NCBI GenBank assembly: GCA_028692205.1
Contig: JAQUXV010000019.1
Coordinates: forward strand, 3,940 to 16,567
Source of the DNA: Eubacteriales bacterium
GTDB taxonomy: Bacteria; Bacillota_A; Clostridia; Christensenellales; Aristaeellaceae
DNA: 12,628 nt
Direction of reading: 5' to 3'
The position numbers were made by a program, and so were the translations under genes. Positions 1,865 through 8,017 of the stretch are shown in pieces. Numbering within the stretch: the stretch's first letter is position 1; each line of letters starts with the position of its first letter. The notes beneath the pieces were generated by a model. The model was not told where the DNA came from, made no database searches, and was given only the letters and a program-made list of their open reading frames with translations.

Positions 1865-1893
1865 TTGACAACCCCGCGTTTATCTGCTATTCT
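1865..1893 (+). promoter_or_regulatory. Sigma-A type promoter of the methionine operon
   Basis: A perfect -35 TTGACA (1865-1870) and a -10 TATTCT (1888-1893) are separated by 17 bases. The expected transcript start is near 1900, giving a leader of roughly 205 bases before metY. This is among the best promoters in the window and begins only a few bases after the cdsA terminator. No clear operator overlaps it, so control is more likely in the transcribed leader. Confidence 0.85.
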
Positions 1894-1927
1894 AACCCAA
1901 ACCTACTCCGAAAGCGAGGGATGACCC

Positions 1928-1990
1928 ATGATCATGACCATGCGAATGTCCGGCATGAGCAATTGTCGCCCCGATAGCGGTCGTGGGTGA
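1928..1990 (+). CDS. Methionine-rich leader peptide (putative attenuator uORF)
   Basis: A 20-residue frame, reading MIMTMRMSGM then SNCRPDSGRG and a TGA stop at 1988-1990. Five of the first ten codons are ATG. GAGGG (1916-1920) lies 7 bases before the ATG at 1928, ideal spacing, and the peptide starts about 28 bases after the predicted transcript start. It lies in the transcribed leader of an operon that makes methionine, ahead of an intrinsic terminator. By analogy with amino-acid leader peptides such as those of trp, his and leu, I infer that ribosome speed through the Met codons senses methionyl-tRNA. Another ATG at 1921 opens an 18-codon frame, but GAGGG directly abuts it, which makes it a poor start. 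No homologue is known to me; translation is unproven. Confidence 0.7.
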   Translation: MIMTMRMSGMSNCRPDSGRG

Positions 1991-2034
1991 ACGCTTTTGC
2001 GTTCGCAACTTTGCGTAGTAGCAAGCCCTCCCGC
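1966..2034 (+). promoter_or_regulatory. Alternative RNA folds of the met leader (proposed anti-terminator switch)
   Basis: Pairings were worked out by hand. Fold 1: 1966-1974 pairs with 1981-1983 and 1985-1990 (nine pairs, one G-U, a bulged T1984). It covers the second half of the leader peptide and ends on its stop codon. Fold 2: GAACGC (1989-1994), loop TTTT, GCGTTC (1999-2004). Competing short hairpins are TTGCG/CGCAA at 1997-2008 and CGCAA/TTGCG at 2004-2015. A candidate anti-terminator pairs 1977-1980 with 2031-2034 and 1985-1988 with 2025-2028, using the same bases as the left arm of the terminator. A ribosome stalled on the Met codons would break fold 1 and free 1977-1988. This is inference; no energies were computed. 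Confidence 0.5.
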
Positions 2035-2053
2035 CTCGGGATGGGCTTGTTTT
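2022..2053 (+). terminator. Intrinsic terminator (attenuator) in the metY leader
   Basis: CAAGCCC (2022-2028) pairs with GGGCTTG (2043-2049), and TCCCG (2029-2033) with CGGGA (2037-2041), leaving loop CCT and one bulged T at 2042. TTTT follows (2050-2053). It lies between the operon promoter and metY, 55 bases before the metY ATG, with no long gene in front of it. It can therefore only act on the operon's own leader transcript, which is the arrangement of an attenuator. Confidence 0.8.
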
Positions 2054-2107: not shown

Positions 2108-3385
2108 ATGGCGAAAAAGAAACCCGGTTTCGAGACGCTCCAGCTGCACGCTGGGCAGATCCCCGATAAGCAAACCTATTCCCGCGCGGTGCCTATTTAC
2201 CAAACCACCAGCTATTGCTACCCCAACGCCAAAGCGGCGGCGGATGTGTTTTCCGGCGTGGCAGAAGGCTTTACCTACACCCGTATTGAAAACCCGACCG
2301 TAGGCGTTTTGGAAGAACGCGTAACCGCGCTGGAGGACGGCGCGGCGAGCGTGGCGTTTGCCAGCGGCATGGCGGCGGTATCGGCGGCGGTGTTCGCCCT
2401 GTGCGATACCGGCGACCATATCGTGGCCATCAGCACGCTGTACGGCGGCACGGTTACGCTGCTGGCCTCGCGCCTGCCGCAGGTGGCGGGCATCACCACC
2501 ACGTTTGTCGATCCCGACGATGTGGCGGCCATGGAAGCGGCCATCCGCCCCAACACGAAAATGCTCTATCTGGAAACCATCTGCAACCCCAACATCAACG
2601 TGCCGGATTTTGACGCCGTCAGTGCCGTCGCCCGCCGCCACGGCCTGCCCTTGGTGCTGGATAACACCTTCGGCATGCCCCCCATCTTCCATGCCAAAGA
2701 GCACGGTGCGGACATCGTTGTCCACAGCCTCAGCAAATACGCGGGCGGCCACGGCACCACCATCGGCGGCATCGTGGTGGATATGGGCACGTTCGATTTT
2801 CACAACCCCCGCTTTGCCAGCCTCACCACGCCCGACGCGCAAAACGGCAACATCGTCTATGCCGATCAGCCCGCGCCCATCGCCACACGGCTCCGGCTGC
2901 AGATGATCCGCGAATTCGGCGCGTGCTTAAGCCCCATGAGCGCTTTCCTGATCCTGCAGGGGCTGGAAACGCTCAGCCTGCGCATTGCCCGGCATTGCGA
3001 CAACGCGCGCAGGGTGGCAGAGTTTCTCAGCACGCACCCCAAGGTCGCCTATGTGCATTACCCGACGCTGACGGGCGATCCCTACCATGTAAGGCAGCTT
3101 ACCTACCTGCCCAACGGCGCGGGCGCCATTATGAGCTTCGGCGTCAAGGGCGGGGTGGAGGCGGGCCGCCGCTTCATCGACGGGCTGACGCTGTTCAGCC
3201 TTCTGGCTAACGTGGCGGACGCGAAATCGCTGGTCATCCACCCGGCCAGCACCACCCACGGCCAGATGAACGAAGCCCAGCTGGAAGCCGCGGGCGTGAA
3301 ACCGGAACTGATTCGCCTGAGCATCGGGCTGGAAGACCCGGACGACCTGATCGCCGATCTGGAGCGCGGCCTCGCACAGGTGTAA
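2108..3385 (+). CDS. metY: O-acetylhomoserine sulfhydrylase (O-acetylhomoserine aminocarboxypropyltransferase)
   Basis: PLP enzyme of the Cys/Met metabolism family that joins O-acetylhomoserine and sulfide to give homocysteine and acetate in the cytoplasm. The 425 residues match the MetY subgroup, which is longer than the roughly 380-residue MetB/MetC enzymes. The PLP lysine is Lys210 in HSLSKYAGGHGT. Asp185 in VLDNTF should contact the pyridine nitrogen. YTRIENPT (57-64) is the segment that reaches the partner subunit's cofactor phosphate. A family SGM block is at 86-88. AAAGGAG at 2092-2098 sets the ATG at 2108 with 9 bases of spacing. It is the first structural gene behind the leader peptide and attenuator, and metA follows after 41 bases. 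The neighbouring acetyl-type MetA supports O-acetylhomoserine as the substrate. Confidence 0.95.
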   Translation: MAKKKPGFETLQLHAGQIPDKQTYSRAVPIYQTTSYCYPNAKAAADVFSGVAEGFTYTRIENPTVGVLEERVTALEDGAASVAFASGMAAVSAAVFALCDTGDHIVAISTLYGGTVTLLASRLPQVAGITTTFVDPDDVAAMEAAIRPNTKMLYLETICNPNINVPDFDAVSAVARRHGLPLVLDNTFGMPPIFHAKEHGADIVVHSLSKYAGGHGTTIGGIVVDMGTFDFHNPRFASLTTPDAQNGNIVYADQPAPIATRLRLQMIREFGACLSPMSAFLILQGLETLSLRIARHCDNARRVAEFLSTHPKVAYVHYPTLTGDPYHVRQLTYLPNGAGAIMSFGVKGGVEAGRRFIDGLTLFSLLANVADAKSLVIHPASTTHGQMNEAQLEAAGVKPELIRLSIGLEDPDDLIADLERGLAQV

Positions 3386-3426: not shown

Positions 3427-4386
3427 ATGCCTGTTAAAATTCCGGACGCGTTGCCCGCAACGCGCATCCTCACCGAGGAAAACGTATTTGTGATGACGGA
3501 GAAGCGTTCGCAGACGCAGGATATCCGCCCGCTTCGCATCGCCATCGTCAACCTGATGCCCACCAAGGAGAAAACGGAAACCCAGCTTTTACGCCTCATC
3601 TCCAACTCGCCCCTGCAGGTGGAAATTACCCTGCTTCGAACCGGCACCTACGAGGGCACGCACGTGTCCACCGATTATCTGGACACCTTTTACCGGACGC
3701 TTAACGATGTGAAGGACGAGTTTTTCGACGGCGTCATCATCACCGGCGCGCCGGTGGAGCGGCTGGATTTTACGGACGTCCTGTACTGGGAGGAGCTTAC
3801 CCGCATCATGGACTGGACGGACCGGCGCGCCTTCAGCACCCTGCACATCTGCTGGGCAGCGCAGGCGGGACTGTACTACCATTACGGCGTCAACAAGCTT
3901 CCCCTGCCCAAAAAGCTGTTCGGCGTGTACGAAACCGCGCTCACCGACCGGCGGGACCGCCTGCTGTGCGGGTTTGACGATACGTTCGTCGTGCCCATGA
4001 GCCGCCATACGGCGCTGGACGAGGAAGCCCTCGCCAAGTGCGACGATCTGGTGGTGCTGGCCACCTCGCCGCAAACCGGCGCTGCGCTTGTGCGCAGCCG
4101 GGACGGGCGGCGCGTGTTCGCCACCGGCCACAGCGAGTACGACCGCGATACGCTGGCCCACGAGTATTACCGCGACGTGGACAAGGGCATGGCCATGGAC
4201 CTGCCTGAGCATTATTTCCCCAACAACGATCCGTCGCTGGCCCCGCGCATGTGCTGGCACGCGCACGCGAGCCTGCTGTTTGCCAACTGGCTCAACTATT
4301 TCGTGTATCAGGAGACGCCTTTTGAGCTTTCCAAAGGCTTAAGTCCTTTGGACACCCATACCGTCCATATCCCCGACAAGCGCTGA
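3427..4386 (+). CDS. metA: Homoserine O-acetyltransferase (MetA family)
   Basis: First committed step of methionine synthesis: transfers an acyl group from acyl-CoA to homoserine. The 319 residues align with the classical MetA numbering: catalytic Cys142 in the ICWAAQAG block, His235 and Glu237 in GHSEYD. Residue 111 is Glu (GAPVE). In this family Glu at 111 marks acetyl-CoA use and Gly marks succinyl-CoA use, so I call it an acetyltransferase although many databases name the family succinyltransferase. This fits metY next door, which uses O-acetylhomoserine. The ATG is set by a perfect AGGAGG at 3415-3420, 6 bases upstream. It lies 41 bases after metY in the same operon. Confidence 0.95.
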   Translation: MPVKIPDALPATRILTEENVFVMTEKRSQTQDIRPLRIAIVNLMPTKEKTETQLLRLISNSPLQVEITLLRTGTYEGTHVSTDYLDTFYRTLNDVKDEFFDGVIITGAPVERLDFTDVLYWEELTRIMDWTDRRAFSTLHICWAAQAGLYYHYGVNKLPLPKKLFGVYETALTDRRDRLLCGFDDTFVVPMSRHTALDEEALAKCDDLVVLATSPQTGAALVRSRDGRRVFATGHSEYDRDTLAHEYYRDVDKGMAMDLPEHYFPNNDPSLAPRMCWHAHASLLFANWLNYFVYQETPFELSKGLSPLDTHTVHIPDKR

Positions 4387-4497: not shown

Positions 4498-5364
4498 ATG
4501 AAAATCGTGGACCTGCTCGGCAGCCCGGGCGTACACATGAGCTGCGAGGTGTTTCCCCCCAAGGAATTCGCGCGCGTTGACGAAGCCAAAGCCGTCGTGC
4601 GCGGCCTTGCGGAGCTTTCGCCCGCTTACATCAGCGTCACCTACGGCGCGGCGGGCCGCACCCCCCATTTTACGCGGGAGCTGGCCGAGGCGGTGCAGGC
4701 TTCCGGCGTGCCGGCGCTTGCGCACCTGACGTGCATCAACGATACCGTTTCCAAAATCGACGAGGTGCTGGATAAGCTTACGGAAGCGGGCGTTACCAAC
4801 GTGCTGGCCCTTCGCGGGGACATTCCCGAGGGCGAAACCTTCCCCACGGGCGACCATTTTGAGCACGCGGCGGAGCTGGTGAGCTATGTCAAAAAGCGCG
4901 GCGGCTTCTGCGTGGGCGCAGCCTGCTACCCCGAAGGGCACCCCGAGGCGGCCAACCGAGCCGAGGATTTGCGCTACCTGAAGCTCAAGGTGGACGCGGG
5001 CGTTGATTTTTTGACCACGCAGATGTTTTTTGACAACGCGACACTGTACAATTTCATGTACCGCGCGCTGAAAGCGGGCATCAGCGTGCCCATCGGCGCG
5101 GGCATTATGCCGGTGGTCAACGCCCGGCAGATCAAGCGCATCGCCTCGCTTTCCGGCGCGACGCTGCCGCCCCGCTTCTGGTCCATCGTCGACCGTTTCG
5201 GCGACGATCCTGCTTCCATGCGGCAGGCGGGCGTAGCCTACGCCACCGAGCAGATTATCGACCTGATCGCCAACGGCGTGAACAACATTCACCTCTACAC
5301 CATGAACCGTGTGGACGTGGCCGCCGATGTGTGCCGCAACCTGGGCGCCATCCTGGGGAAATGA
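4498..5364 (+). CDS. metF: 5,10-methylenetetrahydrofolate reductase
   Basis: FAD-dependent cytoplasmic enzyme that reduces 5,10-methylene-THF to 5-methyl-THF, the methyl donor for MetH encoded downstream. From the ATG at 4498 the protein has 288 residues, normal for bacterial MetF, and begins MKIVDLL. SCEVFPPK at 15-22 holds the catalytic Glu17. Also visible are the HLTC block (76-79), ALRGD (104-108), TTQMFFD (173-179) and the C-terminal GVNNIHLYTMNR (260-271). The frame stays open upstream to a TTG at 4396, but those residues are Arg/Pro-rich products of the hairpin spacer and resemble nothing in the family. AGGAG at 4481-4485 is 12 bases from the ATG, a loose spacing, so translation may be weaker than for its neighbours. 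No MetV partner gene is present. Confidence 0.94.
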   Translation: MKIVDLLGSPGVHMSCEVFPPKEFARVDEAKAVVRGLAELSPAYISVTYGAAGRTPHFTRELAEAVQASGVPALAHLTCINDTVSKIDEVLDKLTEAGVTNVLALRGDIPEGETFPTGDHFEHAAELVSYVKKRGGFCVGAACYPEGHPEAANRAEDLRYLKLKVDAGVDFLTTQMFFDNATLYNFMYRALKAGISVPIGAGIMPVVNARQIKRIASLSGATLPPRFWSIVDRFGDDPASMRQAGVAYATEQIIDLIANGVNNIHLYTMNRVDVAADVCRNLGAILGK

Positions 5365-5428: not shown

Positions 5429-8017
5429 ATGCACCCGTTTCTAACGCTTCTCTCCGAACGGATCACCTATTTTGACGGCGCCATGGGCACCCGCCTGCAG
5501 GCGGTGGGCCTGAAGGGCGGCGAGCAGCCGGAACGCTGGAACCTCACGCACCCGGACGATGTGAAAGCCGTGTACGCAAGCTATCTGCGTGCGGGCGCGG
5601 ACATGGTGACCGCCAACACCTTCGGCGCAAACCCCCTGCATTTTCCGCAGGAATGGGAAACGGTGCTCCGCGCGGGCATCCGGCAGGCGAGGGAAGCTGT
5701 GGCCGAGTCGGGGCGCACCGCCTTCGTGGCGATGGACGCGGGCAGCGTGGGGCGGCTGATCCAGCCGCTGGGTGAGCTGGCGTTTGAGGATGCGGTGGTG
5801 ATTTACCGCGAGATGGCTCTCGCCGCGATCGACGAGGGGTGCGACCTGCTGCTGGCCGAAACCATGACCGACCTGCGAGAGGTGAAGGCCGCGGTGCTGG
5901 GCTACCGGGAAGCGTTTGAACAACTCGGCGTTAGCAAGCCGGTGCTGGTAAGCATGAGCTTCGACGTAAGCGGCAGGCTGCTGACCGGCGCGGATATCGA
6001 GGGCGCGGCGGCGGCGCTGTGCAGCATGGAGGGCGTGGACGCGCTGGGCATGAACTGCGGGCGCGAGCCGAAAGCCCTTTTACCCAACCTAAAACGGCTG
6101 CTCGCCTGCGCGGGCGGAAAGCCCGTGTTCTTTATGCCTAACGCCAGCGTGCCCACCCTCGTTAACGGGCAAACGGTGTTCGCCACCCAGCCGGAGGAGT
6201 TCGCCGCCGACATGGCCGAAGCGGCCCGCCTCGGCGCGCGGGGCCTGGGCGGCTGCTGCGGCACCACCGAGGCGCACATCGCGGCGCTGGTCGCCGCCAC
6301 GAAGCCCCTTTCCAAACCCGTAAAAACCGAAGTGAGTGATGAGGAGGACGGGTTGGCCCCGACCTTCCTTTCCGGGCGCAGCGCCACCGTAACGCTGGGG
6401 GCGCGGACGCTGGTAATCGGCGAGCGGCTGAACCCCACCGGCAAAAAGCGCATGAAACAGGCGCTTCGGGACGGGGAGATCGATTATCTGCTCGGCGAAG
6501 CCACCGCGCAGATGGAGGCGGGCGCGGACGTGCTAGATGTGAACGTCGGCCTGCCGGAGCTGGACGAGCCCAAGCTGCTGACCGAGGTTACCGAAGCCGT
6601 GCAGGGCATCACCGGCGCGCCCCTCCAGCTGGACACCGCCGACCCCGAAGCCCTCGCCCGCGCGCTGCGCGCTTATGTGGGCAAGCCCATCATCAACAGC
6701 GTCAACGGCAAACAGGCCGTGATGGCGCAGGTGTTTCCGCTGGTGCGTAAGTACGGCGGCGCGCTGGTCGCCCTGCTGCTGGACGAGGACGGTATTCCCC
6801 CCACGGTGGAAGGGCGCATCGCCATCGCGCGCCGCATTCTGGCCGAAGCGAAACGCTTTGGCGTGCCCAAGCGCGATCTGCTTTTCGACGCGCTCACCAT
6901 GACCGTGGCTACCGATCCCGACGCCGCGTGCGTGACGCTGGAAACCGTGCGCCGCCTGCACGACGAGCTGCGGGTAAAAACCGTGCTGGGCGTGAGCAAC
7001 GTCAGCTTCGGCCTGCCCGCGCGCGGCGTGCTTACCGCGTCGTTTCTGGCCATGGCGATGGACCGCGGGCTGTCCGCGGGCATTATCAACCCGCTGGATG
7101 AAAGCGTGATGAACGCGTATCGCGGTTCCTGCGCCACACTTGGCTACGACGAGGGTTTTGAAACGTATCTTGCGCGGTATTCCAAGCAGCCTAAGGCGGA
7201 AAAGCCCGCCGCCGGCGTGGAAAACACCGCCGCACGCGAAGCCGTAAAGCTCGCGGGCGAAGCCATCCGCAAGGCGGAAGCGGCGCTGCATATCGCGGGG
7301 CTTGCGCCCGCGGCGGCCCCCGCCTGCGACTGCGCCGTTTGCAACCCCGCCCCGGCAAAGCCTGCCGAGACGCCCGCAACGAAAGACGAGGCTTTTTCGG
7401 AGCTGTTCCAGTCCATCCTTCGCGGGCTTGCCAAAGCCGCCGCGCAGAATGCCGACCGCCTGATGGACGGCGGTGCGGAACCGCTTTCCGTGGTGGAAAA
7501 GGGCGTAATCCCCGCGCTGACCGAGGTGGGCGCGCGCTATGAGCGCGGCGAGTTCTTTTTGCCGCAGCTGATGCAAAGCGCGAACGCCGCCAAGCAGGCC
7601 ATCGCCGCCGCCACCGCGCGGATGCCGGAAAGCAAGCCCTCCGCCGGGCGTACTGTGCTGCTGGCGACCGTGCACGGGGATGTGCACGACATCGGCAAGA
7701 ACATCGTCGCCACGCTGCTGGGCAGCTACGGCTTCGGCGTGATCGACCTCGGGCGGGATGTTCCGCCGGAAACGGTGGTCGCCGCCGCGAAGGAATCCGG
7801 CGTAAAGCTGGTGGGCCTTTCCGCGCTGATGACCACCACAGTGCCCGCCATGCGGGAAACCATCGAGCAGCTGCGCAGGGAGCTGCCGGGCGTGCGCATC
7901 ATGGTCGGCGGCGCGGTGATGACCGAGGAACTGGCAAAAGAGCTTGGCGCGGACGGGTATTCCGCCGACGCCATGGGCTCGGTGCGCTACGCGGGCGAAG
8001 TGCTGGACAAGGCTTAA
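5429..8017 (+). CDS. metH: Cobalamin-dependent methionine synthase, short form without reactivation domain
   Basis: Transfers a methyl group from 5-methyl-THF to homocysteine through protein-bound cobalamin. Domains in its 862 residues: homocysteine-binding barrel about 1-295, with DGAMGT at 16-21 and zinc ligands Cys210 (MNCG), Cys276 and Cys277 (GGCCGT); pterin-binding barrel about 320-580, with GERLNPTGKK at 331-340 and DVNVG at 370-374; a linker about 585-650; helical cap about 652-735; cobalamin domain about 740-862, with His753 in DVHDIGKN as the lower axial ligand. The protein ends after the cobalamin domain, whereas E. coli MetH (about 1227 residues) has a further AdoMet-binding reactivation domain. 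Short forms are common in Bacillota and Thermotogae and need a separate reactivator; none is in this window. The linker has an unusual CDCAVC cluster (Cys633, Cys635, Cys638). AGGAG at 5416-5420 supports the start. Last gene of the met operon, 64 bases after metF. Confidence 0.96.
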   Translation: MHPFLTLLSERITYFDGAMGTRLQAVGLKGGEQPERWNLTHPDDVKAVYASYLRAGADMVTANTFGANPLHFPQEWETVLRAGIRQAREAVAESGRTAFVAMDAGSVGRLIQPLGELAFEDAVVIYREMALAAIDEGCDLLLAETMTDLREVKAAVLGYREAFEQLGVSKPVLVSMSFDVSGRLLTGADIEGAAAALCSMEGVDALGMNCGREPKALLPNLKRLLACAGGKPVFFMPNASVPTLVNGQTVFATQPEEFAADMAEAARLGARGLGGCCGTTEAHIAALVAATKPLSKPVKTEVSDEEDGLAPTFLSGRSATVTLGARTLVIGERLNPTGKKRMKQALRDGEIDYLLGEATAQMEAGADVLDVNVGLPELDEPKLLTEVTEAVQGITGAPLQLDTADPEALARALRAYVGKPIINSVNGKQAVMAQVFPLVRKYGGALVALLLDEDGIPPTVEGRIAIARRILAEAKRFGVPKRDLLFDALTMTVATDPDAACVTLETVRRLHDELRVKTVLGVSNVSFGLPARGVLTASFLAMAMDRGLSAGIINPLDESVMNAYRGSCATLGYDEGFETYLARYSKQPKAEKPAAGVENTAAREAVKLAGEAIRKAEAALHIAGLAPAAAPACDCAVCNPAPAKPAETPATKDEAFSELFQSILRGLAKAAAQNADRLMDGGAEPLSVVEKGVIPALTEVGARYERGEFFLPQLMQSANAAKQAIAAATARMPESKPSAGRTVLLATVHGDVHDIGKNIVATLLGSYGFGVIDLGRDVPPETVVAAAKESGVKLVGLSALMTTTVPAMRETIEQLRRELPGVRIMVGGAVMTEELAKELGADGYSADAMGSVRYAGEVLDKA

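What the first reader, a model, noticed from the sequence alone, without database searches (positions are those of the whole stretch)
1894..1990. Methionine-rich leader peptide ahead of a methionine operon
A promoter, a well-spaced ribosome binding site and a 20-codon frame with Met at positions 1, 3, 5, 7 and 10 lie directly upstream of metY-metA-metF-metH. Leader peptides rich in the end-product amino acid define classical attenuation for Trp, His, Leu, Thr and others, but a methionine-sensing one is unusual. In Clostridia, methionine genes are usually under SAM riboswitches or T-boxes, and I see neither. The design has a twist: low methionine would also lower initiator tRNA, so the sensor would have to separate elongation stalling from poor initiation.
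Basis: partly seen in the sequence, partly recalled or inferred. Interest (0 to 1): 0.85.

Follow-up and report, generated by a model that had tools for sequence, protein, structure and literature searches.

The report
Methionine-codon leader attenuator of methionine genes
A tiny methionine-rich reading frame followed by a transcription stop signal sits before methionine-making genes in this bacterium, and unrelated versions sit before methionine-uptake genes in relatives, so these bacteria probably sense methionine by how fast a ribosome reads methionine codons, a trick known for other amino acids but not, as far as we found, for this one.

Summary
Window 1928-1990 is a 20-codon frame (MIMTMRMSGMSNCRPDSGRG) with promoter, Shine-Dalgarno and a strong intrinsic terminator (2022-2053) ahead of metY-metA-metF-metH. 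No SAM riboswitch or T-box was found there.

Eight homologous leaders precede this operon in relatives (two without metY), all in frame. Met at codon 7 (14 before the stop) is kept in 9 of 9, codon 5 in 8 of 9; the rest drifts.

Decisive: Met/Cys-rich leaders of unrelated sequence, followed by terminators, precede the methionine importer metQ-metN-metI (24 of 70 upstream regions), some other metY genes, and metN or metY in more distant Clostridia. Such clusters precede 29 of 125 metQ/metN/metY ORFs but 2 of 246 others. The SAM riboswitch precedes metK instead in 5 of 5 loci read.

Best explanation: ribosome-mediated transcription attenuation sensing Met-tRNA. Folding suggests the leader's own Shine-Dalgarno is the antiterminator, without covariation support. 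A rare CGA codon before the key Met recurs in several leader types. Known mechanism, new amino acid; eight paper searches listed no earlier report.

The parts
1865..1893 (+). sigma-70-like promoter, TTGACA-17-TATTCT with TG before the -10
   Evidence: Pattern scan. TTGACA is invariant in the six leaders first aligned and was found upstream of all nine by the script.
1916..1920 (+). Shine-Dalgarno GAGGG of the leader frame; inside 'region 2' (1914-1927), predicted antiterminator strand
   Evidence: Sequence. Duplex of 1914-1927 with 2021-2036 is -9.7 kcal/mol; the leader 5' region binds the arm better than the shuffled mean in 9 of 9 leaders; pairs 1914-1920 with 2026-2034.
1928..1990 (+). Met-rich leader ORF MIMTMRMSGMSNCRPDSGRG, stop TGA
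   Evidence: eight homologous frames.
1940..1942 (+). Met codon 5 (-16 from stop), kept in 8 of 9 leaders
1943..1948 (+). CGA-ATG: rare Arg codon, then Met codon 7 (-14), the only Met besides the start kept in 9 of 9; CGA before it in 8 of 9
1955..1957 (+). Met codon 10 (-11)
   Evidence: also in L002, L004 and L063
1965..1978 (+). 'region 1' in the 3' part of the ORF, can pair with region 2 (predicted protector helix)
   Evidence: Duplex -12.0 kcal/mol; similar pairing in the fold and the consensus; no covariation support.
2022..2053 (+). intrinsic terminator CAAGCCCUCCCG-ccu-CGGGAUGGGCUUG-UUUU
   Evidence: Hairpin -22.1 kcal/mol; 95.4% of cells paired over nine leaders. The simple scan did not list it.
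2108..3385 (+). metY, O-acetylhomoserine sulfhydrylase
   Evidence: TIGR01326 above cut-off
3427..4386 (+). metA, homoserine acyltransferase
   Evidence: Best model NF047918 (acetyltransferase MetA), 446 bits against a cut-off of 460.5
4498..5364 (+). metF, methylenetetrahydrofolate reductase
   Evidence: TIGR00676 above cut-off (run on the frame from 4396); start chosen by eye at MKIVDLL
5429..8017 (+). metH, shortened methionine synthase (862 aa)
   Evidence: TIGR02082 best hit, below its cut-off

Best explanation
A ribosome-mediated transcription attenuator whose control codons are AUG. The RNA starts near 1900 (inferred from the promoter). With enough charged Met-tRNA, ribosomes clear the 20-codon leader and new ones load on the Shine-Dalgarno, which keeps region 2 covered, so the terminator 2022-2053 forms and metYAFH is not transcribed. 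When Met-tRNA is short, the leading ribosome stalls at Met codons 5, 7 or 10. It no longer covers the Shine-Dalgarno and blocks the next ribosome, so region 2 pairs with the terminator's 5' arm (2026-2034), the terminator fails and the operon is read. Shown: anatomy, conservation, association with methionine genes. Inferred: sensing of Met-tRNA and read-through under starvation. Least certain: that the Shine-Dalgarno is the antiterminator (about even odds).
For: (1) Anatomy. (2) Frame kept in 9 of 9, Met -14 in 9 of 9, Met -16 in 8 of 9; the CGA-ATG to stop distance is the same in the 8 that have it; other codons drift, pN .375 against pS .324 over nine. (3) Met/Cys-rich leaders of other sequence before metQ/metN: 18 of 30 upstream regions and 6 of 40 (antisense 2 of 40). 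The background, 19 clusters in 192 kb, would give about 4 in the 30 regions. 25 leaders have internal Met 189 of 734 codons and Cys 12.7%, against 2.8% and 1.1% in window genes. (4) A terminator-like hairpin follows in 24 of the 24 with usable sequence, better than all 20 shuffles in 23 (not L104). (5) Clusters before 29 of 125 metQ/metN/metY ORFs, 2 of 246 other ORFs, Fisher p 4e-13, not corrected for kinship. (6) Same layout before metN (L184) and metY (L186, with L187 identical in the printed stretch) in class-level genomes. (7) No Rfam SAM riboswitch or T-box at gathering score in 78 related loci; the SAM riboswitch precedes metK in 5 of 5 loci read. (8) Ribosome-position folding: antiterminator pairing mean .16 on codons 1-3.74 at Met -14.
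Against: No expression data. Other Met codons are lost freely; L007 keeps one internal Met. L005 and L006 have a 74-75% identical metY without leader, and 46 of 70 metN upstreams lack a Met cluster (L114, L124 and L174 are cut by contig ends). Four near-identical metQ leaders show pN/pS .21, so some peptide constraint is not excluded there. Covariation does not support the antiterminator or protector helix. Shuffled 5' regions also pair with the arm (mean .50 against .74; in the window .36 against .41). A first folding run that let pairs span the ribosome gave low values at Met -14 in several leaders (window .11, L001 .02, L002 .00, L007 .00); the rule forbidding that was added afterwards. Even then L001 and L004 give .0 at -16. 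The metQ-type leaders gave no clear antiterminator. A phylum-wide M.MMM.M pattern (61 matches in 45 of 274 genomes) found no leader before a recognisable met gene in the 40 loci read.
Confidence: 0.85

Rival explanations
1. Nascent-peptide sensor: the leader's C-terminal end (G-x-G-UGA) arrests the ribosome at the stop in response to methionine or SAM, as TnaC does for tryptophan; the Met codons are incidental.
For: G-x-G-UGA is kept in 9 of 9 window-type leaders, with wobble changes GGT/GGA and GGG/GGC.
Against: The seven codons CGC CCC GAT AGC GGT CGT GGG are identical in five of the six closest leaders (L060 has GCT for GAT), synonymous sites included, and pN/pS over the last 16 codons is about 1.15, which points to RNA constraint. 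The metQ-type leaders have no such end; 13 of 24 stop at TAA, 11 at TGA.
Confidence: 0.07
2. SAM sensing through release-factor methylation: low SAM leaves RF2 unmethylated, release at Gly-UGA is slow, and the parked ribosome prevents termination.
For: Stop is TGA after Gly in 9 of 9 window-type leaders. Methylated RFs release peptide faster than unmethylated ones (PMC8131318, passages incl. abstract); that the effect is largest after Gly and Pro is recalled, not read here.
Against: Does not explain the Met codons or the metQ-type leaders, 13 of 24 of which end in TAA. In the window a ribosome at the stop gives little antiterminator pairing (.06; mean of nine .59).
Confidence: 0.03
3. An RNA aptamer (new SAM or Met riboswitch); the frame is a by-product of conserved RNA.
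For: Several stretches are conserved at nucleotide level; the leader folds better than shuffles (z -4.4).
Against: Frame, ATG and Shine-Dalgarno kept in 9 of 9; metQ-type leaders share Met codons, not the RNA sequence; no Rfam match, which cannot exclude an undescribed family.
Confidence: 0.04

Closest known systems
Classical amino-acid attenuators (trp, his, leu, thr, phe, ilv leaders of proteobacteria; recalled, and summarised in the abstract of PMC1183508)
   Same: Short ORF rich in control codons, terminator before the first gene, genes for supply of that amino acid
   Different: Control codon is AUG, which is also the start codon; predicted antiterminator is the leader's own Shine-Dalgarno; no Rfam leader family matches
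Leader peptides reported in Firmicutes (His leader before hisS/hisZ, PMC2965389, passages read; leucine-rich attenuator peptide of S. aureus, PMC5794164, listing with abstract start)
   Same: Leader-peptide attenuation outside proteobacteria
   Different: Different amino acid; the passages seen name no methionine leader
Cysteine leader peptides of Actinobacteria (PMC1262725, passages read)
   Same: Sulfur amino acid sensed by codons in a leader ORF
   Different: Cys codons, cys operons, no conserved terminator hairpin in Mycobacterium; the paper says no conserved RNA structures were seen before methionine operons
SAM-I riboswitch (RF00162) and T-box (RF00230)
   Same: The usual RNA control of methionine genes in Clostridia (recalled)
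   Different: Not found in these loci; SAM-I is elsewhere in 27 of 32 genomes, before metK in 5 of 5 loci read

Membership tests
Ribosome-mediated transcription attenuator | Short translatable ORF with Shine-Dalgarno between promoter and first gene | tested here: met
   9 of 9 window-type leaders; translation itself not tested
Ribosome-mediated transcription attenuator | Control codons for the pathway's amino acid, enriched and kept | tested here: met
   Met -14 in 9 of 9; 25.7% internal Met in 25 metQ/N leaders; ATG columns 0.92 against 0.78 nucleotide identity in 7 close metQ leaders, p 0.03
Ribosome-mediated transcription attenuator | Intrinsic terminator between leader ORF and first gene | tested here: met
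   Window and homologs; 24 of 24 metQ/N leaders with usable sequence, 23 above all shuffles
Ribosome-mediated transcription attenuator | Mutually exclusive antiterminator set by ribosome position | tested here: inconclusive
   Predicted for window-type leaders, weaker without the span rule, no covariation; unclear for metQ type
Ribosome-mediated transcription attenuator | Derepression when the charged tRNA is short | not testable with these tools
   Needs expression experiments
SAM riboswitch | Match to a SAM riboswitch covariance model in the leader | tested here: not met
   Window, E up to 1; related loci at gathering score
T-box | Match to RF00230 in the leader | tested here: not met
Metabolite-sensing arrest peptide (TnaC-like) | Leader peptide under selection as amino acids | tested here: not met
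   Window type pN/pS about 1.15, metQ type about 0.9 outside Met codons; one set of four near-identical leaders gives .21

The most novel reading that the evidence does not exclude
Methionine attenuation in these Clostridia is a two-input sensor built round a CGA-AUG dicodon. Because the leader's Shine-Dalgarno is also the antiterminator, poor initiation (little formyl-Met initiator tRNA) and elongation stalling (little elongator Met-tRNA) could both favour read-through. The stall is sharpened by CGA, a slowly read codon that makes up 2% of Arg codons but precedes the key Met in 8 of 9 window-type leaders and in 3 of 3 CCRM leaders of the second metY. Upstream of metQ the hexamer CGAATG occurs in 40 of 69 loci (2 antisense), also where no Met cluster exists, and neighbouring copies lie a multiple of three apart in 14 of 18 cases, as codons would.
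Probability: 0.25. Interest if true: 0.88.

Novelty: new variant of a known kind. Interest (0 to 1): 0.74.

Why it matters
Methionine is the amino acid for which codon-counting attenuation looks least likely, since AUG also starts most proteins. Bacteria are known to use SAM riboswitches, T-boxes or repressors for it (established knowledge). Here the cell appears to split the task: SAM is read by a riboswitch before metK, and Met-tRNA by leader peptides before Met synthesis and uptake. It gives a direct experiment on how a leader tells elongation stalling from poor initiation, and a reason to look for short Met-rich frames ahead of metQ and metY in other Clostridia.

Tried and rejected
Considered and dropped: peptide-end sensing and RF2 methylation (first favoured after the G-x-G-UGA end was seen, then weakened by neutral pN/pS and by metQ-type leaders without that end). 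New riboswitch (no Rfam match; frame kept). Weak covariance-model hits: of five read for the six-sequence model (L064-L068) the stretches seen were plain terminators or coding; of 20 loci for weak hits of the nine-sequence model (L082-L101) three were Met-rich leaders (L086, L088, L090), L101 is the L063 locus on the other strand, L084 and L098 printed empty and were not read, and the other 14 looked like plain terminators. Order-wide exact pattern: 1 of 396 genomes. Ribosome-position folding of metQ-type leaders gave no clear rule. Class-wide M.MCMC pattern: 12 of 274 genomes, reversed-pattern control 4; 13 loci read: L184 and L186/L187 precede met genes, L183 is a homologous leader whose next gene is cut off, the others were no met leaders as far as read. 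Phylum-wide M.MMM.M pattern: 45 of 274 genomes, 61 matches, 40 loci read, none before a recognisable met gene; L213 has a short Met/Cys-rich frame but the next long ORF looks, by eye, like an aldolase. Other-metY survey: of 28 loci (L029-L056) seven had a frame of 8-60 codons with at least 4 Met; five look like leaders (L032, L035, L039, L041, L048), two do not (L042, L044).

Correction made on checking: the second frame before metQ (motif NRESxRM) gave pS .435 and pN .024 over 13 copies, but those copies had been picked by the amino-acid motif, so pN is biased low. Taken without that bias, by CGAATG in the 24 Met-leader loci, 19 have CGAATG: 11 read NRESRRM, six read close variants (NRCSMRM, NQESRRM, NRCSRRM, NTESRRM, NVESRRM, NILNERM), two (L162, L168) are unrelated.

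Rows dropped before counts: loci L008-L021 (other phyla); L111 (not extracted), to which L104 and L086 were added from outside the 70; L156 (stored piece unusable); L174 (143 nt long). The 40 regions follow the list but leave out G433 (already held, a positive) and G626 (overlooked). Searches used slightly different cluster rules. 'Other' ORFs include many that may not be genes. Loci share ancestry, so p-values overstate independence.

Full report
WHAT IS THERE. The window carries uppS, cdsA, then a promoter TTGACA-17-TATTCT (1865-1893), a Shine-Dalgarno GAGGG (1916-1920), a 20-codon frame at 1928-1990 (MIMTMRMSGMSNCRPDSGRG), an intrinsic terminator at 2022-2053 (-22.1 kcal/mol) and metY-metA-metF-metH. 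Rfam finds no SAM riboswitch or T-box. The Met-rich frame is unique in the window, and 200 randomised windows contain none with a Shine-Dalgarno. No whole genome is held for the window; its closest MetY relatives (84-87% identical) are Clostridia MAGs.

HOMOLOGOUS LEADERS. A search with MetY in genome contigs gave 21 loci, seven of them close; five of the seven have the same leader (L001-L004, L007) and two do not (L005, L006). Covariance models found three more (L060, L061, L063) in the genus (5 of 6 genomes hit) and the family: at least eight of the 308 held family genomes carry this type. In L060 and L061 the leader stands before metA-metF-metH without metY. All nine frames are open with an ATG start. 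Met at -14 is in 9 of 9, Met at -16 in 8 of 9 (L007 has Ala there). L007 (MRWFDQARMPGRVCLPSLCGLG) keeps a single internal Met.

WHAT IS SELECTED. Outside Met codons the last 16 codons show pS .324 and pN .375 over nine leaders.194 and .221 over the six closest, so the peptide is not conserved as a peptide. In the six closest the last seven codons are almost identical even at synonymous sites, which suggests RNA constraint.

INDEPENDENT LEADERS. Three weak hits of the second model turned out to be other Met-rich frames, before metQ-metN-metI or metN (L086, L088, L090). MetN, MetQ and MetI are best HMM hits below NCBIfam cut-offs; the Pfam NIL domain (MetN) and NlpA lipoprotein domain (MetQ) reach theirs. 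A MetN search in the 308 genomes hit 259. Of the 30 best loci 18 have at least 5 Met in 16 in-frame codons upstream (about 4 expected from the background of that call), and of 40 further regions 6 have (antisense 2 of 40). Three of the 70 are cut by contig ends (L114, L124, L174). Examples: MMKQQAIMMSMMMPMCMCRMSMLRCAFK, MKNTAMMSMMMRMCSMCMASRVNLRWAFR, MKATREMMDRMMCMRRMCMFCCAVFG. In 25 such leaders internal Met is 189 of 734 codons and Cys 12.7%, against 2.8% and 1.1% in the window's genes. A terminator-like hairpin follows in all 24 with usable sequence, 14-50 nt after the stop; L104 did not beat its best shuffle. Five of 28 loci of other metY genes have Met/Cys leaders too.

SPECIFICITY. In 400 nt before ORFs of at least 200 codons, such clusters occur before metQ 23 of 58, metY 5 of 35, metN 1 of 32, metA 0 of 20, metF 0 of 10, metH 0 of 7, metI 0 of 31, and other ORFs 2 of 246. 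One of the two others is the antisense of a leader, the other a Cys/Met-rich frame with terminator before an amino-acid ABC permease (L039). Kinship inflates the p-value of 4e-13.

WIDER SPREAD. A pattern for M-x-M-C-M-C in 274 genomes of the class matched 12 (reversed control 4). Among 13 loci read, L186 and L187 (identical in the printed stretch) have MIIELVISMDMCMCSMDMHAKKCMSAVF, a terminator and then metY; L184 has MRTNVSAYLNMNASDMCLSDMYMCMCMSMPCCSHIAFCSYL, a terminator and then metN; L183 is similar but cut before the next gene. A protein search with the L184 leader found one further relative, 73% identical. A phylum-wide pattern gave nothing in 40 loci read.

DIVISION OF LABOUR. 27 of 32 genomes examined have a SAM-I riboswitch, two in G602 and G388, one in the rest; in 5 of 5 loci read metK follows on the same strand (four above the metK cut-off, one cut by the contig end). 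T-boxes match in all 32 at E up to 0.001 and above the cut-off in 25, but neither family matches any of 78 related loci at gathering score (some loci overlap).

HOW IT MAY WORK. I folded the nine window-type leaders up to the terminator's 5' arm with a ribosome placed at each codon. A first run allowed pairs across the ribosome and gave low antiterminator pairing at Met -14 in several leaders. After forbidding pairs that would span the ribosome with under 20 nt of linker, pairing of the 5' leader with the arm is low with the ribosome on the first three codons (mean .16) and high at the invariant Met (mean .74, lowest .41, which is the window). With shuffled 5' regions the mean is .50; the duplex beats the shuffled mean in 9 of 9, but 2 to 42 of 200 shuffles reach it. 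So a stalled ribosome may free the Shine-Dalgarno to act as antiterminator, while a loading ribosome covers it. Covariation neither supports nor excludes this. The metQ-type leaders gave no simple rule.

CGA-AUG. CGA is 62 of 2789 Arg codons in 191 met ORFs, and 2 of 82 Arg codons before Met there. It precedes the invariant Met in 8 of 9 window-type leaders, in CCRM leaders of the second metY (3 of 3) and in L086, but not in the RM of L041, which is CGG, nor in that of the L103 Met-rich leader, which is CGC. Upstream of metQ CGAATG occurs in 40 of 69 loci, in 2 of 69 antisense and in 9 of 69 in the metQ part; neighbouring copies are a multiple of three apart in 14 of 18. Several loci without a Met cluster have frames such as VKGKTTWRDD(RM)CRCCLN(RM)RRPD. 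This is unexplained.

KNOWN OR NEW. It works like the classical attenuators; the theory of such devices is in PMC1183508 (abstract read). Eight paper searches on methionine leaders (listings, of which one search showed 15 of 117) listed no methionine leader-peptide attenuator; most subscription papers are not in that library. PMC3766115 lists His, Trp, Thr and Leu as the amino-acid leaders it analysed (passages).

Noticed in passing
L104-L111, L114, L116-L119, between leader terminator and metQ (e.g. L105 reverse strand near 498): A second short frame ends in N-R-E-S-x-R-M (13 copies, pS .435, pN .024, but picked by the motif, so biased). Without that choice, 17 of 24 Met-leader loci have this or a close variant.
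   Followed up: partly
window 1943-1948; L032, L035, L048, L086; 40 of 69 regions upstream of metQ: The hexamer CGAATG (rare Arg codon CGA before Met) recurs in several kinds of leader, also in loci without a Met cluster, mostly in one frame. Reason unknown.
   Followed up: partly
L103:8068-8934 and L104:5948-6796 (reverse strand): MetQ may be circularly permuted: in L103 the best of two stretches, residues 35-170, matches positions 99-234 of 236 of the NlpA lipoprotein profile (L104 similar); L102's MetQ has the usual order by eye.
   Followed up: no
L032, L035, L048 upstream of metY: A conserved Cys/Met leader with CCRM...SRA before a second type of metY, followed by a CCCGGG-rich hairpin.
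   Followed up: no
L039:3289-3432: Leader MCMGVGTMSKRMCGMQLGECSCTCLALPCVSCLF, rich in Cys, with a terminator before an amino-acid ABC permease; may sense cysteine.
   Followed up: no
window 5429-8017: metH is 862 aa and falls far below the full-length model's cut-off (427 of 1011 bits), so it looks like a shortened form.
   Followed up: no
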